37,637 bases of DNA from Prevotella sp. (GTDB lineage: Bacteria; Bacteroidota; Bacteroidia; Bacteroidales; Bacteroidaceae), in NCBI GenBank assembly GCA_017474515.1, contig JAFVHN010000095.1, forward strand, positions 1-37,637, read 5' to 3'. Numbering within the stretch: position 1 is the stretch's first letter; every line of letters starts with the position of its first letter. Of this stretch, positions 9,075 through 16,503 are shown one piece after another. Under the pieces are notes generated by a model that was given only the letters and a program-made list of their open reading frames with translations, was not told where the DNA came from and did not search any database. Both the position numbers and the translations under genes were made by a program.

Positions 9075-9169
9075 GAAATGTAGATGATTTTCCGTTTGCA
9101 AATAATTATAAAAGAAAGGAAAACGGAAGAAAATGAGGGGAGGGGGAGCGGGTTTTCGATTATTTGTTG

Positions 9170-9177
9170 TAATTTTG
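9170..9177 (+). promoter_or_regulatory. -7 element of the sufB promoter
   Basis: TAATTTTG matches TAnnTTTG and lies 23 bases before the sufB ATG at 9201. No clear TTTG stands 19-21 bases upstream. Its position excludes the longer in-frame start at 9084. Confidence 0.55.
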
Positions 9178-9200
9178 CAGGGAAAAACGGAAAAGGAGAC

Positions 9201-10694
9201 ATGCAAGATACTGGAAACCAAGACAACGGAAAGAAGAAAAAGCCGACGGAAGGGAACGACAACGAGCTGGTGAGACGCATTGCCGAGCAGAAATACGAGT
9301 TCGGGTTCACCACCGACGTGGCGACGGACATCATTGAGAAAGGACTCAACGAGGACGTGGTGCGCATTATCTCGAAGAAGAAGGGCGAGCCGGAATGGAT
9401 GCTCGACTTCCGCCTTCGTGCGCTGCGCCACTGGCAGACCATGCGCCAGCCGGATTGGGGCCACCTCCACCTGCCGCCCATCGACTATCAGGCCATCAGC
9501 TACTACGCCGACCCGCTGGCGAAGAAGGCGAAGGGCGACGGAAAGATAGACCCCGAGTTGGAAAAGACCTTCGACAAGCTGGGCATCCCCCTGGAGGAGC
9601 GGCTCGCCCTGAGCGGCAACACCGCCGTGGACGCCATCATGGACTCGGTGTCGGTGAAGACCACGTTCAAGGAGAAGTTGCGCGAGAAAGGCGTCATCTT
9701 CTGCTCCATCGGCGAGGCCATCAAGGAGCACGGCGACCTGGTGCGCCAATACCTCGGCACCGTGGTGCCCTACCGCGACAATTTCTTTGCCGCCCTCAAC
9801 TCGGCGGTGTTCAGCGACGGCTCGTTCGTATATATCCCCAAGGGCGTGCGGTGCCCCATGGAACTGAGCTCCTATTTCCGCATCAACGCCCTGGGCACGG
9901 GGCAATTTGAGCGCACGCTCATCGTGGCCGACGACGACAGCTACGTGAGCTACCTGGAGGGCTGCACGGCCCCCATGCGCGACGAGAACCAGCTGCATGC
10001 CGCAATTGTGGAAATTGTGGTGATGAACCGCGCGGAGGTGAAATACTCCACGGTGCAGAACTGGTACCCGGGCGACGAAAACGGACGCGGCGGCGTGCTC
10101 AACCTTGTCACCAAGCGCGGCGACCTGCGCGGCGAGGGGTCCAAGCTGTCGTGGACGCAGGTGGAAACGGGCTCCGCCGTGACGTGGAAATATCCGTCGT
10201 GCGTGCTTCGCGGCGACAACTCCACGGCCGAGTTCTACAGCGTGGCCGTTACGAACAACTACCAGCAGGCCGACACGGGCACGAAGATGATACACATGGG
10301 CCGCAACACCAAATCGACCATCATCTCGAAAGGCATCAGCGCCGGCCATTCGCAAAACAGCTACCGAGGCCTGGTGCGGGCCACGGCGAAGGCCGACAAC
10401 GCCCGCAACTACTCGTGCTGCGACAGCCTCTTGCTGGGCAGCGAGTGCGGGGCGCACACCTTCCCCTATATGGACGTGCACAACCCCACGGCCATCTTCG
10501 AGCACGAGGCCACCACGAGCAAGATTTCCGAAGACCAGCTCTTCTATTGCAACCAGCGCGGCATTCCCACCGAGCAGGCCGTGGGGCTCATTGTCAACGG
10601 CTACGCCAAGGAGGTGCTCAACAAGCTCCCGATGGAGTTTGCCGTGGAAGCGCAGAAACTGCTTAGCGTAACGCTTGAAGGAACGGTGGGGTGA
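9201..10694 (+). CDS. sufB: Fe-S cluster assembly protein SufB
   Basis: SufB is the scaffold subunit of the SufBCD complex on which Fe-S clusters are built in the cytoplasm. The product is 497 aa, normal for the family. It shows the right-handed beta-helix core with [19 protein letters not shown], the [11 protein letters not shown] stretch, [17 protein letters not shown] and the C-terminal helical signature [20 protein letters not shown]. The ATG at 9201 follows AAAAGGAGA and the -7 element. Unusually, sufC is not next: an opposite-strand five-gene module and two repeat elements lie between, so sufB is 5 kb from its partners. It must be transcribed separately from sufCDS. Confidence 0.97.
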
Positions 10695-10711
10695 CTTGCA
10701 AGTTTTTTTGG

Positions 10712-10743
10712 AGTTTAGGAGTTTAGGAGTTCAGGAGTTCAGA
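10712..10743 (+). repeat. 8-bp tandem array, AGTTTAGG type
   Basis: Four perfect-period units: AGTTTAGG (10712-10719), AGTTTAGG (10720-10727), AGTTCAGG (10728-10735) and AGTTCAGA (10736-10743). The last unit runs into CGATAGT. It starts 17 bases after the sufB stop. A sister array is at 12152-12183. Confidence 0.9.
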
Positions 10744-10794
10744 CGATAGTTTTCTTCTCAATAAAGAATGTGGGTGGAAAACTATCGTCTGAAC
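10737..10794 (+). repeat. 18-bp inverted repeat after sufB
   Basis: GTTCAGACGATAGTTTTC (10737-10754) is perfectly complementary to GAAAACTATCGTCTGAAC (10777-10794) around a 22-base loop. It overlaps the last unit of the 8-bp array. No T-run follows, so it is an atypical terminator; it may protect the 3' end of the sufB mRNA. Confidence 0.85.
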
Positions 10795-10825
10795 TTATAA
10801 AATGATAAGGCAAAACGGGCCTTCG

Positions 10826-11056
10826 TTTTGTCAAGATTTTTCAACAAATTTTGGTTCCCCCAAGAAGTTTGACGGCAAATTTCGGGGAGAGAATTGGCAA
10901 ATTGAGGGGAGAGAATTGGCGTTTTTCTCCCCTCAATTTGCGGTCAAACACCACGCTATTTGCAAGCCTTTGATTTTCAACAAATTACAAAACCGTCGGA
11001 AAATCGGCGATTTTGTCAAGATTTCTTACCAAAATTCCCCCATGTCCTTATCCATC
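10826..11056 (+). repeat. Interspersed palindromic element, copy A (plus)
   Basis: Conserved blocks in order: TTTTGTCAAGATTTTTC (10826-10842); inverted-repeat arm beginning GTTTGACGGCAAATTTCGGG (10867-10891); opposite arm ending TTTGCGGTCAAAC (10927-10949); TTTTGTCAAGATTTCTTACC (11011-11030) followed by AAAATTCCCCC; then CTTATCCATCAC (11047-11058). The first and last large blocks form a direct repeat. The internal sequence GCAAATTGAGGGGAG (10897-10911) also pairs perfectly with 10927-10941, giving competing hairpins. The copy fills most of the 444-base gap between sufB and the next gene; no gene is supported in that gap. Copies B and C share block order and spacing. Confidence 0.85.
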
Positions 11057-11063
11057 ACACGCA

Positions 11064-11106
11064 CAAAAAAACGGGACTGGCGCCTTTTACAAGCGAGTCC
11101 CGTTTT
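11064..11106 (-). terminator. Terminator of the SPFH module
   Basis: AGTCCCGTTTT (11096-11106) pairs with AAAACGGGACT (11068-11078). Read on the minus strand, the stem is followed by a run of seven T (11070-11064). It lies just beyond the 3' end of the DUF4359-like gene. Confidence 0.85.
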
Positions 11107-11138
11107 CTTATTATTCCTGTTTCTTTCAACGAGCCGGG

Positions 11139-11675
11139 TTATTTGTTTTTCTGCGCCTTGCGCTCTTCCTTTTCCCTGCGTCGTTCTTCCTTAGCCTTGC
11201 GCCGCTCCTCCTTTGCCTTTCGGCGTTCCTCTTTCAGCTGTTCGCGTTTCAGCCTCTTGACATCCTTGAGCGCCACCTTTGCCGCTTCCAGTTCGTTTTT
11301 TGCCTCATCCTTTTCATCGGCGGCCTTTTCCAGTGCCTCGCGCAGCATTTTCTTGTCGAACGTAAACACATGTCCCAAGATGCCCAGCGAGAGGGTGCGG
11401 TCGTTGCCGCCCTGGCTGATGTGCGTGGTGTTGAACAGGTAGTAGTTGTTCACCTGCAACTTGCTGTTGAGCGCCACCTCCACGGTTTTGTTCACGATGT
11501 TTTTTCCCAGCTTCGTCAGGGCATTGTCGCCAAATCCCCTGTTCTCAGCCTCTTCGTCCACATACGCTTTCACGGCTTCCATCATGGCGGCCTTGTGTGC
11601 GGCCTTGTCGGGAACCGTCTGTGTCATCAATACCGCCACCAGCAGCAGGATGACAATAACCAAAAGTTTTTTCAT
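11139..11675 (-). CDS. Membrane-anchored DUF4359-like protein
   Basis: A 178-aa protein. Residues 1-20 form a hydrophobic N-terminal anchor or signal (KKLLVIVILLLVAVLM). A central domain (about 24-115) carries TVPDKAAHK and NNYYLFNTTHIS and reads like DUF4359, a family of unknown function; that name is from memory. From about residue 113 to the end the protein is almost wholly Lys, Arg, Glu and Ala, with repeats of KEERRKA, a long charged helix or coiled coil. It is the last gene of the minus-strand module, 93 bases after the GYF_2 gene, with its own -7 element at 11702-11709. It may be expressed both with the module and alone. Role unknown. Confidence 0.75.
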   Translation of the reverse strand: MKKLLVIVILLLVAVLMTQTVPDKAAHKAAMMEAVKAYVDEEAENRGFGDNALTKLGKNIVNKTVEVALNSKLQVNNYYLFNTTHISQGGNDRTLSLGILGHVFTFDKKMLREALEKAADEKDEAKNELEAAKVALKDVKRLKREQLKEERRKAKEERRKAKEERRREKEERKAQKNK

Positions 11676-11701
11676 CTTTTTCTATGTATTGTTTGCGCGT
11701 G

Positions 11702-11709
11702 CAAAGATA
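11702..11709 (-). promoter_or_regulatory. -7 element before the DUF4359-like gene
   Basis: On the minus strand this reads TATCTTTG, a full TAnnTTTG match 26 bases before the ATG at 11675. A matching TTTG 19-21 bases upstream is not evident. Confidence 0.5.
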
Positions 11710-11768
11710 CAAAAAAAGAGAGAAAAGCCATTATGTTAGGCAAAAAAACATGCCATTCGCCCGATTTC

Positions 11769-12128
11769 TCAGGGCTGCACGGCGGTGGTGAGGGGCGGCG
11801 GGGTGAGGGCCACGATGCGGAGCACCTGAGGCACCTGTTCCGCGGGTTTCCATTCGGCCATGCCGGGCATCCAGCACAGCGTGTCCTTGTTGAGCCTGTG
11901 GCTGAGCACCATTTGCGACAACTCGCGCTCGTCGAGCGGTCCCAGGGGTTGCCCGTCCACGGCCACATAGAACATTTCGGGTTGTGGCTTCGGCATGGTC
12001 TGAATGCTTCCGGGCACCTGCATTTGTTGCAACTGCTGGTTCATGCTTCCCACCATCTGGCGGGCTATCTGCATGCTCATGCCGAACTCCACGAGGCGGT
12101 CGAGCGAAAAGAAATTGCTGTCGTCCAT
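11769..12128 (-). CDS. GYF_2-domain protein
   Basis: A 119-aa protein. Residues 1-50 are helical, Met- and Gln-rich and probably oligomerising. Residues 52-104 form a GYF_2 (DUF4339) domain: MFYVAVDGQPLGPLDERELS, then TLCWMPGMAEWKPAEQVP. The GPL, W-x-x-GM and W-x-A positions match the family. The tail contains TPPPL. GYF-type domains bind proline-rich peptides in eukaryotes; bacterial GYF_2 proteins are poorly studied. The same domain type ends the SPFH protein two genes upstream, so the two probably act on one target. No membrane segment is visible. Confidence 0.85.
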   Translation of the reverse strand: MDDSNFFSLDRLVEFGMSMQIARQMVGSMNQQLQQMQVPGSIQTMPKPQPEMFYVAVDGQPLGPLDERELSQMVLSHRLNKDTLCWMPGMAEWKPAEQVPQVLRIVALTPPPLTTAVQP

Positions 12129-12151
12129 ATTGTTGATATTTATTTTTTGGG

Positions 12152-12183
12152 AGTTTAGGAATTTGGGAGTTTAGGAGTTTAGA
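12152..12183 (+). repeat. 8-bp tandem array, second copy
   Basis: Units AGTTTAGG (12152-12159), AATTTGGG (12160-12167), AGTTTAGG (12168-12175) and AGTTTAGA (12176-12183), followed by CAATAGT. Unit, period, copy number and tail match the array at 10712-10743. This one lies inside the minus-strand module, between two of its genes. Confidence 0.85.
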
Positions 12184-12234
12184 CAATAGTGGAGGCGGGA
12201 GCGCCTATTCCCCGTGAGGGGCTGGTTTAGGTGT

Positions 12235-12555
12235 TCAACCCTTTTTCCTGAATTTCACCCACACCAGCGCACCGAGCACGATAAGCAGTACGGCAAAAAT
12301 GCGCAAGCCCGTTCGCCAGGTGGCCTGGTCGTCTTTTTCCTCTTCCATCATTTTTTCCATGTCTTCGGCGCCCTCCTTGACGAGGTAATATTTCGCTCCG
12401 TCGAGATAGAGCGAGGTGAGCGAGTTGCCCTTGATGCGGCCAATGACGGTAACGGTCTGCAAGGGGTTGACAACCCGGTACGACACGTCCACGTCGCCGC
12501 TGGTGTCGTAGTCACGATTTGAGGCGATCCTGAAGCCCCTCTTCGTCATTTTCAA
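12235..12555 (-). CDS. Small C-terminally anchored membrane protein
   Basis: About 106 residues from a TTG at 12555. The N-terminal 70 residues look like a beta domain (DVSYRVVNPLQTVTVIGRIKG); the C-terminus is one membrane helix (about residues 82-102) ending in the basic VKFRKKG. No ATG or GTG start exists. The same frame stays open upstream, without a start codon, right back to the stop codon of the SPFH gene at 12697-12699. That upstream part is A/T-richer than its surroundings but reads plausibly as protein. The gene may have lost its start, may use a rare start, or may once have been joined to the SPFH gene. Family not recognised. Confidence 0.55.
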   Translation of the reverse strand: MKMTKRGFRIASNRDYDTSGDVDVSYRVVNPLQTVTVIGRIKGNSLTSLYLDGAKYYLVKEGAEDMEKMMEEEKDDQATWRTGLRIFAVLLIVLGALVWVKFRKKG

Positions 12556-12696
12556 CGTATAGCTTTGGTCGTCGGTGGCGGTTTCCGCTGCCTTGTCAAC
12601 TAGAAAGTGCTTATCAATTTTACTTTCATTGTGGCCGGTTTCTTTAGTTGCTAATAGATATTGCTGAGAATCAACAACATACCGAACATAGAGCGA

Positions 12697-14088
12697 TTAA
12701 GGCATGGGCGGGGGCATGGGCGGGGGAGTGGCTCCGGCCGGCGGTGCGAAGAGCGGCGACAATTCGGGTTGCATGGCGGCCTCGCCCCATTGCGCCATTC
12801 CCTGCCTCCATACGAGCGTCTGGGGCTTCAAGTTTCCATTTTGCACCAGTTGCATCATTTGCGGCTGGGAGAAAGGCCCGGCCTGCTGTCCGCCGATGGC
12901 CACAAACCATTGCACGTTGGGCATGGGCGGCGGCGTGGGCTGGCTGCCGGGCATGGGCGGTGGCGTGCCGCCTTGTGGTTGTTGCCAATATTGTCCCATG
13001 TTTCCCATCATTCCGGCCATTTGGTGTCCCATTGCTCCGCCCATCATCATTCCGGTCATCATTCCGGCGGCATTCATTCCTCCTCCGCCGCCACCGTCGC
13101 CCATCTGCCCCATTTGTCCGAGGCTCTCTGCGGCGGCCTTGAGCACTTCGGTCTGCTGGTCCAGTCCGTGTGCTCCGATGAATTGCGTTTCGGTCTGCAG
13201 GCGTTGTGCGCGCTGAGCCTCCTCCCTTTGAATGCGCAGGGTTTCCTCCATGTTTTGTCGGTTGATTTCCTGCGTATCCTTCAGGTTCTTGATGTTCACG
13301 TCGCGCTGAGCCTTCAAGGTGTCGGCGGTGATGCCTGCGGTGAGGTGCCTGAGCTCCTCGTAGTAAGGGCTTTCCTTGTTGATTTCTATGGCCGCAATGT
13401 CAATGGCCTTGAGGTTCACGCCGAAGTCGGTTTCAATCCTTGGCCTGAGTTTTTGCTCTGAGCGCTCGTTCACCTCCATAATCATTCGCTCCACCTGCAC
13501 GAGCGGCAGACCCGTTTCTTGCGGCAGGTTGGCCACGATGCCCTTGATGTTGCGGCGCACGGCGTCCTGAATCTGCTTGATGAGATTCTCGTGGCTGAAG
13601 TTCACCAGGCGGTTGAGCTTGATGAACTGCTTGTAGTCGGTGATGTTGAACGTCATGGTTCCCCTTACGGCCACGGGCACGCCGTGGTCGGGCAGGCGGG
13701 GGTCGAAGACGTCGAAATAGGGTACGGCGAAGCGCACCTGGTTGTTCTGCTGAAGGTTAATGAAATACACCTCGGCCTGGAATGGCGAGTCGCCGCCGTA
13801 GGCCAGCCCGATGATGTTTGTCAATACGGGCAGGTTGGCCGTGGTGATGGTCTGCTCGAAGGGCCCCTCAATGAAGTCCTGCATGGTGCCGTCTTTCTGC
13901 TGATAGACGAAAACCGCCACCTCGCCGTCTTTCACGCGCAGGGTGCTTCCCCAGCGAATGCTGTTCTCACGGCTGGTGCTATTGGCCTCCTGGTTCCTGG
14001 GCCTCCATTTCCACACGATATATTCTTGCTCGTCGCAACGGATGACGTTCATGATTCCGCCTCCGCGACCTCTTCCGAAAAGTCCCAT
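12697..14088 (-). CDS. SPFH/band-7 protein with C-terminal GYF_2 domain
   Basis: A 463-aa protein. Residues 20-250 form an SPFH/band-7 domain of the YdjI-like ('virion core protein') branch: short N-terminus without a membrane helix, the VWKWRP segment, and a DFGVNL-x-AIDIAAIEI strand near 221-236. A coiled coil follows (about 255-305), then a Gly/Met-rich linker (325-370), PPPMP motifs at 376-380 and 386-390, a GYF_2 domain (392-442: WFVAIGGQQAGPF, LVWRQGMAQW) and a second proline-rich tail ending PPPMPPPMP. Bacillus YdjI helps recruit PspA to stressed membranes. Replacement of the zinc-ribbon end by GYF_2 is what sets this protein apart. It lies 48 bases after the zinc-ribbon membrane gene. 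Confidence 0.88.
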   Translation of the reverse strand: MGLFGRGRGGGIMNVIRCDEQEYIVWKWRPRNQEANSTSRENSIRWGSTLRVKDGEVAVFVYQQKDGTMQDFIEGPFEQTITTANLPVLTNIIGLAYGGDSPFQAEVYFINLQQNNQVRFAVPYFDVFDPRLPDHGVPVAVRGTMTFNITDYKQFIKLNRLVNFSHENLIKQIQDAVRRNIKGIVANLPQETGLPLVQVERMIMEVNERSEQKLRPRIETDFGVNLKAIDIAAIEINKESPYYEELRHLTAGITADTLKAQRDVNIKNLKDTQEINRQNMEETLRIQREEAQRAQRLQTETQFIGAHGLDQQTEVLKAAAESLGQMGQMGDGGGGGGMNAAGMMTGMMMGGAMGHQMAGMMGNMGQYWQQPQGGTPPPMPGSQPTPPPMPNVQWFVAIGGQQAGPFSQPQMMQLVQNGNLKPQTLVWRQGMAQWGEAAMQPELSPLFAPPAGATPPPMPPPMP

Positions 14089-14136
14089 TGTTTATAAGTT
14101 TAAAAGGTGAAAAAAAAGAAAGGGTGAAAAAAAGAG

Positions 14137-15114
14137 CTATTCGCTGACGCTGGTGTCGTCTTCCTCGACTTCGCTGAGGTCGTAGATTTCGTGTCCGCAA
14201 TACTTGTCAATCTCTTTCTTGTGGGTCACATAGAACGTGGAAAGCTGATTGGTGTAGTTCTTGAACAGCTTGTCGAATGTTTCCTTCTTTGTCTTCTCAT
14301 AGCTGGAATATTCGTCCACGGTGGTCCAGATGATGTCCATGGCGGCGTTTTTCCTCTGCTCAAAGTTCTCGATGGTGAGGGGAAGTGCCTTCAGGCTGTC
14401 GAGTTGTCCCACCAGGGTGTTGTATTGCTCGTCAACTTTCAGCTCGGTCTGTGAGTCGGAGCACATGCCAATGAAAGTGAGAATGGCGCCGATGATGAGT
14501 GCCACGAGGCATCCGGTGTAGCAGCCTTTGTTGTTTTGGTAGCTCAGGCTGTTTCCTCCGCCCGACCCTTTCAATGCCGCAATCCTGGCCTTCTCCTCCA
14601 TTTTCTTCATTTCGGCCTCTTGCCTGCGTCTTTCGGCTTCCTGTTTCTTCCACTCAGCAACCTCCTGGCGTATTTCTTCAAGCAGGACCTTCACCTTCGG
14701 GTTTTCGCCGTAGAGTGTCATGGCCTTGCGGCGGTGCTCCTCGAGTGTTGCCACCACCAGGGGTGCGTTGACGGTTCCGGCCTTCAATTGTGCCAGTCCG
14801 CGGTTCATCTGCTCAATGAGGAAGTCGAGTTCCTGGTTGCGGCTGTCGTTGCTTACCACGCTTCCGCATGAGGGGCAGATGCCCGTCAGGGCCGGAAGGA
14901 TTTCGCCGCAGGCGGGGCACTTGAGCAACTTGGGCTGGGCGGCCTGCTTCTGCTGGCGTATTTTCTGGACTTCAGCGTCGAGCAACAGGTTGACCTCGTC
15001 GGGGTCGTTGCCTTCGAGTAGTGCGCGCTTCACGATAATGGCGCGTTCCTCGGGGGTGAGCATGCCGTCAACAAGCGAGGCGGCAATAAGCTCTCTTAGG
15101 GATTCTGAGAACAT
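14137..15114 (-). CDS. Zinc-ribbon membrane protein of the SPFH module
   Basis: A 325-aa protein and the first gene of the minus-strand module. Residues 1-50 form a helical TerB-like segment with LVDGMLTPEER and DPDEVNLLLD. A zinc ribbon follows (C66-x2-C69, C80-x2-C83: CPACG and CPSCG). A long charged coiled coil covers about 140-182, then a Gly/Ser hinge and one membrane helix (about 199-218, CLVALIIGAILTFIGMC). The C-terminal 105 residues, on the other side of the membrane, are helical and end in an acidic tail. The layout resembles Bacillus YdjG (zinc ribbon plus membrane helix), partner of YdjI. That parallel is structural inference, not a family assignment. Confidence 0.8.
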   Translation of the reverse strand: MFSESLRELIAASLVDGMLTPEERAIIVKRALLEGNDPDEVNLLLDAEVQKIRQQKQAAQPKLLKCPACGEILPALTGICPSCGSVVSNDSRNQELDFLIEQMNRGLAQLKAGTVNAPLVVATLEEHRRKAMTLYGENPKVKVLLEEIRQEVAEWKKQEAERRRQEAEMKKMEEKARIAALKGSGGGNSLSYQNNKGCYTGCLVALIIGAILTFIGMCSDSQTELKVDEQYNTLVGQLDSLKALPLTIENFEQRKNAAMDIIWTTVDEYSSYEKTKKETFDKLFKNYTNQLSTFYVTHKKEIDKYCGHEIYDLSEVEEDDTSVSE

Positions 15115-15266
15115 GGCGTTTATCTGTTTTAGTTAATATTTAAGGTGGATGATGATATGAAAAGAACCTGCGGACAGGCCGCCGGATGTTTAAAGGGGGG
15201 AGTGTTTACATCATTGTCTTGGTTTGGGGTTAAAGTGGAAAGTAAAGACTGGAAATAATAGTGCCA

Positions 15267-15274
15267 CAAATTTA
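15267..15274 (-). promoter_or_regulatory. Possible -7 element of the SPFH module
   Basis: On the minus strand this reads TAAATTTG, matching TAnnTTTG. It would give a leader of about 145 bases. No good TTTG is found at the right spacing upstream, so support is weak. Confidence 0.35.
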
Positions 15275-15366
15275 TAAATAAATTTTCATTTACCGTCGTT
15301 TCGGGTTGAAAAATAAACATCTGGTAAATATTTTTTACCTTCGTTAACAACACGACAGACAGCTAT

Positions 15367-15586
15367 CCGGGTGGATAGAAACTGTCAAAAATTTTGACAA
15401 AAACGAGGAAAACTGCCGGCTTTTGTAACATACTGATAATCAAGGGTGTATAAATCGGTGAGAGTTTGACCGCAAATTTCGGGGAGAGATTTTGAAGTTT
15501 GAGAGGAGAAATCTTCAAGATCTCTCCCCGAAATTTGCGGTCAAACCCCGGCCCCCTTGAAAGTTTCCATGAAAAATCTTGACAAA
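15367..15586 (-). repeat. Interspersed palindromic element, copy B (minus)
   Basis: Read on the minus strand the block order is that of copies A and C: TTTGTCAAGATTTTTCATG (15586-15568), the inverted repeat (15546-15464), a TTGATTATCAGT block, TTTTTGTCAAAATTT (15403-15389) and CTATCCACCCGG (15378-15367). The inverted repeat is the longest of the three copies: 15464-15497 against 15513-15546, 34 bp with one G-T pair, of which the outer 26 bp are perfect, around a 15-base loop. The gap 15115-15765 holds this element and promoters; no gene is supported in it. Confidence 0.85.
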
Positions 15587-15699
15587 CCTCGCGCCTTCTG
15601 CCCTGCGCGGGTATTGTGAAAAAACGTTTTCGCGAGTAGAGGAACAAGCCACTTTTTCGACACTTTAGCAGCGAAGATAAACATTTCTTCCTCAGAGTG

Positions 15700-15730
15700 G
15701 CCGATAATTCGGCTTTTTTGTGTAAATTTG
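15700..15730 (+). promoter_or_regulatory. sufC promoter region with hairpin
   Basis: TAAATTTG (15723-15730) is the -7 element, 35 bases before the sufC ATG; it lies after the in-frame ATG at 15697, which is therefore excluded. Just upstream GCCGA-TAAT-TCGGC (15700-15713) is followed by six T, a small terminator-like hairpin lying where the -33 element should be. It could block read-in or be bound by a regulator. Confidence 0.5.
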
Positions 15731-15765
15731 CACTCTTAAAACAATTATCAAAGAAAAAAGCACCG

Positions 15766-16503
15766 ATGTTAGAGATAAGAAACCTGCATGCCCGCATCGA
15801 CGGGAAAGAGATACTTCGCGGCATCGACCTCACCGTGGGCGACGGCGAAACGCACGCCATCATGGGTCCCAACGGGTCGGGAAAGAGCACGCTGAGCGCC
15901 GTGCTGGTGGGCAACCCCCTTTACGAGGTCACCGAGGGCGAGGCGTGGTTCAACGGCAAGAACCTGCTGGAAATGAAGCCCGAGGAGAGGGCCCACGAGG
16001 GGCTCTTCCTCTCGTTCCAATATCCCGTGGAGATTCCCGGCGTGTCGATGACCAACTTCATGAAAGCCGCCATCAACGAGAAACGCAAGTACCTGGGACT
16101 GGAGCCGATGAACGCGGCGGAATTCCTCAAACTGATGAGGGAAAAGCGCAAAGTGGTGGACCTCGACGCAAAGTTGAGCAACCGCTCGGTGAACGAGGGG
16201 TTCAGCGGCGGCGAGAAGAAGCGCAACGAGATTTTCCAGATGGCCATGCTGGAGCCCAAGCTCAGCATCCTCGACGAAACCGACTCGGGGCTCGACGTTG
16301 ACGCCATGCGCATCGTGGCCGAGGGGGTGAACAGCCTGCGCACGCCCCTCAGCTCGTGCATCGTCATCACCCACTACGACCGCCTGCTCGAAATGATCAG
16401 GCCGCAACAGGTGCACGTGCTCTACAAGGGACGCATCGTGAAGACGGCAGGGCCAGAGCTGGCAAGGCATATTCAGGAGAATGGGTACGACTGGATAAAA
16501 TAA
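15766..16503 (+). CDS. sufC: Fe-S assembly ATPase SufC
   Basis: SufC is the ABC-type ATPase of the cytoplasmic SufBCD complex and drives the conformational change needed for cluster assembly. The 245-aa product has Walker A GPNGSGKS (34-41), the ABC signature FSGGEKKR (146-153) and Walker B ILDETDSGLD (168-177), with the Q-loop in LSFQYP. ETDSGLD in place of the commoner EPTSGLD is typical of SufC. It starts a sufC-sufD-(pRiA4b-type gene)-sufS unit with its own promoter. The 111 bases before sufD carry a palindromic repeat. Confidence 0.97.
   Translation: MLEIRNLHARIDGKEILRGIDLTVGDGETHAIMGPNGSGKSTLSAVLVGNPLYEVTEGEAWFNGKNLLEMKPEERAHEGLFLSFQYPVEIPGVSMTNFMKAAINEKRKYLGLEPMNAAEFLKLMREKRKVVDLDAKLSNRSVNEGFSGGEKKRNEIFQMAMLEPKLSILDETDSGLDVDAMRIVAEGVNSLRTPLSSCIVITHYDRLLEMIRPQQVHVLYKGRIVKTAGPELARHIQENGYDWIK

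What the first reader, a model, noticed from the sequence alone, without database searches (positions are those of the whole stretch)
11139..15114. SPFH / GYF_2 / zinc-ribbon membrane module, possibly an undescribed membrane-stress system
Seen: five minus-strand genes encode a zinc-ribbon protein with one membrane helix, an SPFH protein with a C-terminal GYF_2 domain, a small C-terminally anchored membrane protein, a second GYF_2 protein, and a membrane-anchored DUF4359-like protein with a long charged tail. Known: in Bacillus, the zinc-ribbon membrane protein YdjG and the SPFH protein YdjI recruit PspA to damaged membranes. Inference: this is a Bacteroidetes counterpart in which GYF_2 domains are the recruiting surface and no PspA is encoded nearby.
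Basis: partly seen in the sequence, partly recalled or inferred. Interest (0 to 1): 0.75.

Follow-up and report, generated by a model that had tools for sequence, protein, structure and literature searches.

The report
PspA-free SPFH membrane scaffold cassette
Three of the five genes belong to a compact gene cassette found sparsely across Bacteroidota, which probably builds a protein patch on the inner side of the cell membrane, like a Bacillus membrane-stress module but without its main protein PspA; the other two genes are probably bystanders.

Summary
The five minus-strand genes are real, but they are not one system. Three of them (zinc-ribbon protein, SPFH-GYF_2, small GYF_2 protein) belong to a discrete four-gene cassette found sparsely across Bacteroidota. 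The "small C-anchored protein" is a TMEM43-family fragment seen at this place only in the window. The DUF4359-like gene is an independent gene with relatives elsewhere. The block sits between sufB and sufC.

The YdjGHI comparison is partly right: same Band_7_1 family, no TM in the SPFH protein, a zinc-ribbon partner often with a TM. But PspA is missing from this genome and, at the family cut-off, from 43 of 44 carriers searched, and GYF_2 replaces the Bacillus zinc ribbon. New here: GYF_2-tailed Band_7_1 proteins almost always carry PPP motifs (98 of 99), zinc-ribbon-tailed ones do not (0 of 3). This suggests that GYF_2-polyproline cross-linking assembles the scaffold. Function (membrane stress) is inferred, not shown. 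New variant of a known kind.

The parts
14137..15114 (-). ZR: TerB/DUF533-like N-terminal helices (by alignment to its family), one zinc ribbon (CPAC...CPSC), coil, one membrane helix, C-terminal ~100 aa tail; proposed membrane tether
   Evidence: homologue in 74 of 79 distinct SPFH loci
12697..14088 (-). SPFH scaffold: Band_7_1 + M/G-rich helix + PPP linker + GYF_2 + PPP tail; no predicted membrane helix
   Evidence: only Band_7_1 match in the own genome
11769..12128 (-). SG: small protein with conserved N-terminal motif (DRLVEFGM..A.QQMV..MN) + GYF_2 + TPPPL tail; third cassette gene
   Evidence: homologue in 77 of 79 distinct SPFH loci
12235..12696 (-). TMEM43-family fragment with one membrane helix (possible ORF 12235-12549/12555), probably a decayed gene; lies in the SPFH-SG gap where 11 other loci hold variable genes; not a conserved part
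   Evidence: slot compared
11139..11675 (-). DUF4359-like membrane-anchored protein; neighbour, probably not part of the cassette; TATCTTTG box at 11702-11709
10866..10952 (.). palindromic intergenic repeat, left flank of the block
15463..15549 (.). palindromic intergenic repeat, right flank of the block (two stretches 85% and 89% identical to the left copy)
9084..10694 (+). sufB, upstream neighbour (named from its similarity to SufB/SufD-type proteins, by eye)
15766..16503 (+). sufC, downstream neighbour (start inferred from the ORF 15697-16503; named by eye)

Best explanation
The ZR, SPFH-GYF_2 and SG genes (plus, in most relatives, a 4-TM gene) form a cytoplasmic-face membrane scaffold that works like the YdjG/YdjI part of the Bacillus pspA-ydjGHI operon but without PspA. 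Proposed working: soluble SPFH protomers oligomerise (inferred from the SPFH superfamily); ZR and/or the 4-TM protein tether them to the inner membrane (inferred from predicted helices and from YdjG/YdjH); the GYF_2 domain at the end of each SPFH chain binds PPP tails of neighbouring SPFH chains, of SG and of GYF_2-tailed cargo, giving a cross-linked patch, with SG as free linker or cap (inferred from GYF_2/PPP association). The patch would organise or protect the membrane and recruit variable client proteins encoded in the SPFH-SG slot. In the window the slot holds only a TMEM43 remnant, and the DUF4359 gene is a neighbour. Shown: gene conservation, domain content, absence of PspA matches, GYF_2-PPP association. 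Inferred: oligomer, tethering, binding, physiological role.
For: First flanking genes share little: of 134 scanned, the commonest Pfam family is in 8, so the cassette is a discrete unit. SPFH has no predicted membrane helix in 79 of 79 and SG in 77 of 77; 63 of 66 4-TM ORFs have four; 59 of 87 ZR ORFs have at least one (simple hydropathy rule). 77 of 79 loci encode at least one predicted anchor; 12 of 13 loci that lack the 4-TM gene but have ZR carry a ZR with a helix (Fisher p 0.049, not corrected for kinship, largely one clade). PPP: 77 of 79 SPFH and 53 of 77 SG ORFs, against 10 of 863 other mechanical ORFs (100 aa or more) of the same loci; in the last 35 residues 73 of 79 SPFH against 0 of 863. 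Across the Band_7_1 proteins looked at, GYF_2-tailed 98 of 99 have PPP, zinc-ribbon-tailed 0 of 3. In L036 both SPFH and SG carry zinc ribbons instead of GYF_2, i.e. both tails switched together (one locus). GYF_2 residues are invariant (W427, G430, M431, W434 in 68 SPFH; G63, W86, W93 in 72 SG; L036 and some near-duplicates not in these alignments). A eukaryotic GYF domain binds a proline-rich motif (PMC5657617, passages). PspA over the cut-off in 1 of 44 carriers. YdjI is held to be soluble and needs YdjG and YdjH for membrane foci (PMC8581546, sections 7 and 11).
Against: The PPP association is not corrected for kinship and the zinc-ribbon class has only 3 members; other GYF_2 proteins here are proline-rich too (3 of 3 DUF4359 fusions have PPP), so PPP may be a spacer. 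24 of 77 SG ORFs lack PPP. The eukaryotic GYF ligand seen in print is PPGF, not PPP. Without L036 the SPFH-tail/SG distance correlation (0.51) is no higher than that of the SPFH domain with SG (0.58), so the tails show no extra co-evolution. The TPM partner YdjH has no counterpart among the window proteins and 4-TM proteins scanned, and ZR resembles YdjG only in zinc ribbon plus membrane helix; 24 of 74 loci with ZR have no predicted helix in it. No stress regulator or promoter was found that ties the cassette to envelope stress. Distribution is very patchy (7 of 393 genomes of the order, own included), which also suits a conflict system. Distance correlations of ZR with SG and with the SPFH tail are weak (0.15, 0.22 without L036).
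Confidence: 0.5

Rival explanations
1. A true Psp system: the cassette recruits a PspA/ESCRT-III protein encoded elsewhere in the genome.
For: Closest studied relative YdjI recruits PspA (PMC8581546); band-7 genes are found next to pspA in Bacteroidota (PMC9239133 passage). PF04012 matches in 156 of 375 genomes of the phylum sample, 147 over the cut-off.
Against: No PF04012 match in the own genome and only 1 of 44 carrier genomes over the cut-off, 2 more below it. Completeness of 39 of the 44 is not told; other ESCRT-III-type families were not searched.
Confidence: 0.05
2. The cassette is an accessory conflict (anti-phage or anti-bacteriocin) membrane module with exchangeable effectors in the SPFH-SG slot.
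For: Patchy distribution (7 of 393) with 58-81% SPFH identity to the window among 67 others in unrelated contexts; variable slot genes (bPH_1 in L167, LRR_5-GYF_2 in L146, GYF_2-tailed in L145, DUF6591 lipoproteins in L115, L118, L148); a ZR-SPFH pair on a viral contig (L237); PD-T4-6, MkoA and mad6 matches in 3 of 134 flanking proteins each, PDC-S01 in up to 5 (25 of 49 families shown).
Against: No PADLOC match for SPFH, SG, TMEM43 piece, DUF4359 or one 4-TM protein; ZR only weak coil-region matches to LmuB (5.6e-5) and Cas9 (0.0017). Several flanking families are metabolic. Only 1 relative of SPFH in viral contigs, none of SG. No control set of flanks was scanned.
Confidence: 0.2
3. The five genes are one operon and one machine, with DUF4359 and the small anchored protein as working subunits in this lineage.
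For: Same strand, adjacent; GYF_2-DUF4359 neighbours in one frame or next to each other in 13 same-genus genomes (tables compared), so DUF4359 can be a GYF_2-linked protein; the TMEM43 piece keeps one membrane helix and the window lacks the 4-TM gene.
Against: Neither gene occurs in the 80 named loci L105-L184. DUF4359 relatives of 52-63% identity lie elsewhere, 5 of 9 stand-alone contexts looked at beside two glycosyltransferase-like genes (naming by eye). TMEM43 homology extends past any ATG; no counterpart at this place in the other loci.
Confidence: 0.1
4. GYF_2 and PPP are just flexible spacers or decoration; the SPFH protein works alone as a chaperone-like ring.
For: Proline-rich linkers accompany GYF_2 in unrelated proteins here; SPFH tails do not track SG better than the SPFH domain does.
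Against: SG, essentially a free GYF_2 tail, is in 77 of 79 loci, and both tails switch together in L036 (one case).
Confidence: 0.15

Closest known systems
Bacillus subtilis pspA-ydjGHI (YdjI = SPFH, YdjG = zinc ribbon + TM)
   Same: SPFH protein held to be without its own anchor, a zinc-ribbon membrane protein encoded in the same operon, small domain at the SPFH C-terminus (PMC11237479 and PMC8581546); B. subtilis has a Band_7_1 match (that it is YdjI is recalled)
   Different: No PspA, no TPM protein detected; SPFH tail is GYF_2 + polyproline instead of a zinc ribbon; extra SG gene; 4-TM protein with no clear Pfam family; ZR family begins with TerB/DUF533-like helices rather than two zinc ribbons and a YpeB-like domain
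GltJ/AgmX of Myxococcus (zinc finger + GYF; architecture recalled)
   Same: its GYF domain is the only solved-structure match to the SPFH and SG profiles (PDB 7z3c, 2.4e-9 and 3.5e-10); NCBIfam NF033761 matches
   Different: Only the GYF_2 stretch matches, far below the GltJ family cut-off (38.8 of 450 bits); gliding role is recalled, not tested
TMEM43/LUMA family (PF07787)
   Same: 12256-12600 matches model positions 89-204
   Different: Fragment lacking both ends; genes in 14 other genomes (13 in one frame of 419-498 aa, one split over two contigs); in the 6 stretches looked at no cassette gene lies near
Band-7/flotillin operons linked to PspA (PMC9239133, PMC11237479)
   Same: SPFH protein with membrane partners
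   Different: Neither paper's main text holds a word beginning with GYF; the cassette has no PspA

Membership tests
Bacillus pspA-ydjGHI module | SPFH protein of Band_7_1 type without membrane helix | tested here: met
   3.8e-25, over cut-off; 0 helices in 79 of 79
Bacillus pspA-ydjGHI module | adjacent zinc-ribbon membrane protein (YdjG-like) | tested here: met
   but domain order differs, the zinc ribbon of the window protein is below Pfam cut-offs, and 24 of 74 loci with ZR have no predicted helix in it
Bacillus pspA-ydjGHI module | PspA encoded in the operon | tested here: not met
Bacillus pspA-ydjGHI module | TPM-domain membrane protein (YdjH) | tested here: not met
   no TPM match among the five window proteins or 14 4-TM proteins; slot and flank genes of relatives not checked in full
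Bacillus pspA-ydjGHI module | induction by envelope stress | not testable with these tools
   needs expression data
Psp response | PspA/IM30 protein PF04012 | tested here: not met
   0 in own genome, 1 of 44 carriers over cut-off
GYF_2 (PF14237) | match over the curated cut-off | tested here: met
   64.9 and 63.4 bits against 25.8; only these two matches in the own genome
TMEM43 (PF07787) | full-length domain | tested here: not met
   positions 89-204 of 250 only
DUF4359 (PF14271) | match over the curated cut-off | tested here: not met
   24 bits against 27, but positions 1-102 of 103
known anti-phage systems (PADLOC) | matching model | tested here: not met
   no match except weak coil-region matches of ZR

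The most novel reading that the evidence does not exclude
A PspA-independent bacterial membrane platform assembled by multivalent GYF_2-polyproline contacts: SPFH oligomers display GYF_2 domains and polyproline tails, SG is a free linker, and GYF_2-tailed or proline-tailed clients encoded in a variable slot are docked onto it; in some lineages zinc ribbons replace GYF_2 in both proteins at once.
Probability: 0.35. Interest if true: 0.75.

Novelty: new variant of a known kind. Interest (0 to 1): 0.48.

Why it matters
It would show that the SPFH half of a Psp-like membrane system is a working unit by itself in bacteria that lack PspA, and would give bacterial GYF_2 (DUF4339) domains a concrete job: holding membrane scaffolds together through proline tails. 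The prediction is small enough to test with three purified proteins.

Tried and rejected
Five-gene unit: rejected, since the TMEM43 piece and DUF4359 do not recur. PspA elsewhere in the genome: not found. Defence system: PADLOC gave nothing for the cassette beyond weak coil matches; flanks hold a few matches, with no control set (25 of 96 and 25 of 49 families shown). Phage-borne system: one IMG/VR relative of SPFH, none of SG. Phylum-wide co-occurrence with PspA: by match positions the sample of 375 holds a complete SG only in the own genome, so no contingency test was possible. SG N-terminal helix as a copy of the SPFH helix before GYF_2: hmmsearch found 0 of 79 at E<0.01, hhalign gave probability 73.7, so only suggestive. 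ZR against solved structures: zinc-ribbon-level matches and a weak tellurite-resistance-type match (0.066). sigma-70 scan not informative: 5 sites against 3.0 expected, 12 terminator-like against 8.0.

Rows dropped before counts: 4 of the 80 named loci gave no complete SPFH ORF by my caller (L126, L142, L147, L168; L147's genome was still). L123 and L166 are the same contigs as L033 and L034 and were removed, leaving 79 distinct with the window. 3 of 137 flank references were left out of the flank alignment (134 scanned). Alignments A5 (72 of 77 SG) and A6 (68 of 79 SPFH) leave out L036 and some near-duplicates. The GYF regex missed L110 and that missed L047; both have GYF_2 by eye (L047 also matched the GYF query); GYF_2 in L239-L243 is by eye. 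The 98 of 99 / 0 of 3 count adds the 79 to 14 second-family SPFH proteins (L037-L047, L049-L051), L048, L052, L236, L237 and five of the order search (L239-L243); the one GYF_2-tailed protein without PPP is L145. PPP in SG was counted on stop-to-stop ORFs. PspA was searched in 44 of the 83 handles I first listed.

Papers: passages only of PMC9239133, PMC11237479, PMC5657617, PMC7159879, PMC10936438; passages and sections 7 and 11 of PMC8581546; other papers only as search listings. The GltJ biology is recalled.
Full report
OBSERVATION. The five minus-strand ORFs are present. Pfam gives Band_7_1 + GYF_2 for 12697-14088 and GYF_2 for 11769-12128, both far over the cut-off; DUF4359 just below cut-off for 11139-11675; only sub-cut-off zinc ribbons for 14137-15114; and TMEM43 for 12235-12555. 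The own genome (3.5 Mb, 118 contigs, 88% complete) has no other GYF_2 match, no other Band_7_1 match, no other TMEM43 match and no PspA match. The whole block lies between sufB and sufC, on the opposite strand.

WHICH GENES BELONG TOGETHER. A protein search in 119 related genomes matched 36; SPFH homologues over most of their length are in G059, G004 and G045 (same genus) and, in two pieces, in G083 (same order), besides more distant SPFH-GYF_2 and other GYF_2 proteins. An alignment of these five with the window's was used to scan one genome for each of 84,980 named species: 213 relatives, best 80 fetched, titled as Bacteroidota-type organisms except one 'uncultured bacterium'. In the 79 distinct loci with a complete SPFH ORF (window included), profile searches within 6 kb found ZR in 74, SG in 77 and a 4-TM protein of about 115 aa in 65; usual order ZR, SPFH, SG, 4-TM. 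Thirteen other loci share the window's lack of the 4-TM gene, among them its closest relatives by SPFH identity; in three of the thirteen a contig end is near. Flanking genes are unlike from locus to locus: among 134 first flanking proteins the commonest Pfam family, AAA_14, is in 8. The loci were fetched by SPFH similarity, so the counts speak of neighbours of this SPFH family, not of all SPFH proteins.

WHICH DO NOT. The TMEM43 piece is found at this place in no other locus. TMEM43 genes occur in 14 other genomes of the relatives sample: 13 in one open frame of 419-498 aa, one (G018) split over two contigs; in the 6 stretches looked at no cassette gene lies near. The homology of the window piece begins upstream of any ATG in the frame and ends before the last part of the model, so it looks like a remnant. 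It lies in the gap between SPFH and SG, where 11 other loci (SG 464 bp or more behind SPFH) hold varied genes: of those scanned, DUF6591 lipoproteins (L115, L118, L148), a bacterial PH protein (L167), a DUF4013 protein (L113), GYF_2-tailed proteins (L145; L146 with BspA-type leucine repeats), others without any Pfam match (L120, L129, L155). The DUF4359 gene has relatives in 48 of 119 genomes, own included; of 9 stand-alone contexts looked at, five lie beside two glycosyltransferase-like genes (naming by eye). None of the 80 named loci has either gene. Yet GYF_2 and DUF4359 lie in one open frame in 12 same-genus genomes and side by side in a thirteenth (tables compared), so a link between the two domains exists in the genus.

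HOW IT MAY WORK. SPFH and SG have no predicted membrane helix (79 of 79 and 77 of 77), the 4-TM protein has four in 63 of 66 ORFs, ZR at least one in 59 of 87 ORFs (simple hydropathy rule). 77 of 79 loci encode some anchor. This matches B. subtilis, where YdjI, held to be soluble, needs YdjG and YdjH for membrane foci. The C-terminal parts carry the new observation. SPFH proteins have PPP in 77 of 79 cases and within the last 35 residues in 73 of 79; other mechanical ORFs of 100 aa or more in the same loci have PPP in 10 of 863 and in the last 35 residues in 0 of 863. Where zinc ribbons replace GYF_2, PPP is absent: 0 of 3 (L036, L048, L052), against 98 of 99 with GYF_2; under random assignment this split has a chance of about 2e-5 (4/171,700, worked by hand, kinship ignored). 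In L036 the SG protein has switched to zinc ribbons too. Since a eukaryotic GYF domain binds a proline-rich peptide, and aromatic residues of the domain are invariant, I infer that GYF_2 domains of one chain hold proline tails of the next, of SG, and of clients. The ligand in that paper is PPGF, so the bacterial specificity is open. The co-switch rests on one locus, and without it the SPFH tail tracks SG no better (0.51) than the SPFH domain does (0.58).

PSPA. Over the PF04012 cut-off 1 of 44 carrier genomes (a Mucilaginibacter MAG) has a match and 2 more match below it; in a 375-genome sample of the phylum 147 are over the cut-off. Kinship confounds the contrast: the sample is drawn differently and, by their titles, many carriers are Prevotella-like MAGs. 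It is enough to say that the cassette does not seem to need PspA.

DISTRIBUTION AND MOBILITY. 7 of 393 genomes of the order, own included, carry an SPFH relative at E<=1e-50, while SPFH identity to the window is 58-81% among the 67 others aligned. No plasmid record covers most of the query (16 records, best 27% identity); a 'Bacteriophage sp.' record and one IMG/VR contig hold a zinc-ribbon gene followed by an SPFH-GYF_2 gene, without SG. Pairwise-distance correlations between cassette genes (L036 left out) are 0.58 SPFH-SG, 0.64 SPFH-4TM, 0.68 SG-4TM, 0.48 SPFH-ZR, but only 0.15 SG-ZR and 0.22 SPFHtail-ZR, so ZR is the loosest member. The window block is bracketed by similar palindromic repeats (10866-10952, 15463-15549).

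LITERATURE. Full-text searches for SPFH/GYF/PspA/TMEM43 (20 of 45 papers listed), YdjI/YdjG/SPFH (12 of 13), DUF4339/GYF_2/TerB/SPFH (3 of 3), YdjI/zinc ribbon/SPFH/GYF/Prevotella (2 of 3) and DUF4339 or GYF_2 domain (2 of 2) listed no paper whose title or abstract start describes this cassette; the library holds only open-licence papers. PMC11237479 describes the Bacillus operon as band-7 with C-terminal zinc ribbon plus a two-zinc-ribbon TM protein and a TPM protein (passages).

VERDICT.

Noticed in passing
window 9084-16503; L186-L214: The sufB-sufC gap is a recurrent insertion place in this genus: among 29 other genomes with a fetched sufB locus, 14 have sufC within 235 bp of sufB, 6 have it 374-957 bp away, 1 at 1336 bp, and in 8 it is not within the 1.5 kb held, where unrelated genes lie.
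   Followed up: partly
window 10703-10750 and 12143-12190: A 48-nt direct repeat (88% identical) brackets SG and DUF4359; the palindromic repeats bracket the wider block from DUF4359 to ZR.
   Followed up: no
L098 5033-5998, L099 5596-6498, L100 5854-6744 and ten more genomes: GYF_2-linker-DUF4359 proteins (one open frame in 12 same-genus genomes, side by side in a thirteenth); the three read in full have PPP linkers.
   Followed up: partly
L237 6579-8729; L236 13050-15759: A viral contig and a record named Bacteriophage sp. carry a double-zinc-ribbon protein followed by SPFH-GYF_2; L236 may be bacterial.
   Followed up: partly
flanks of L105-L184 and L033-L036: Ion-channel-type families: Ion_trans in 2 and Castor/Pollux-like in 2 of 134 flanking proteins (by eye the Ion_trans genes are those at L035 10813-11631 and L115 11193-12050).
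   Followed up: no
L037-L047, L049-L051: A second, shorter SPFH-GYF_2 family (about 368-416 aa); all 14 seen have PPP; its neighbours were not analysed.
   Followed up: no
window 11702-11709: TATCTTTG, the Bacteroidetes -7 type box (recalled motif), 26 bp before the DUF4359 start; TANNTTTG occurs 24 times in the window against 11.6 expected.
   Followed up: no
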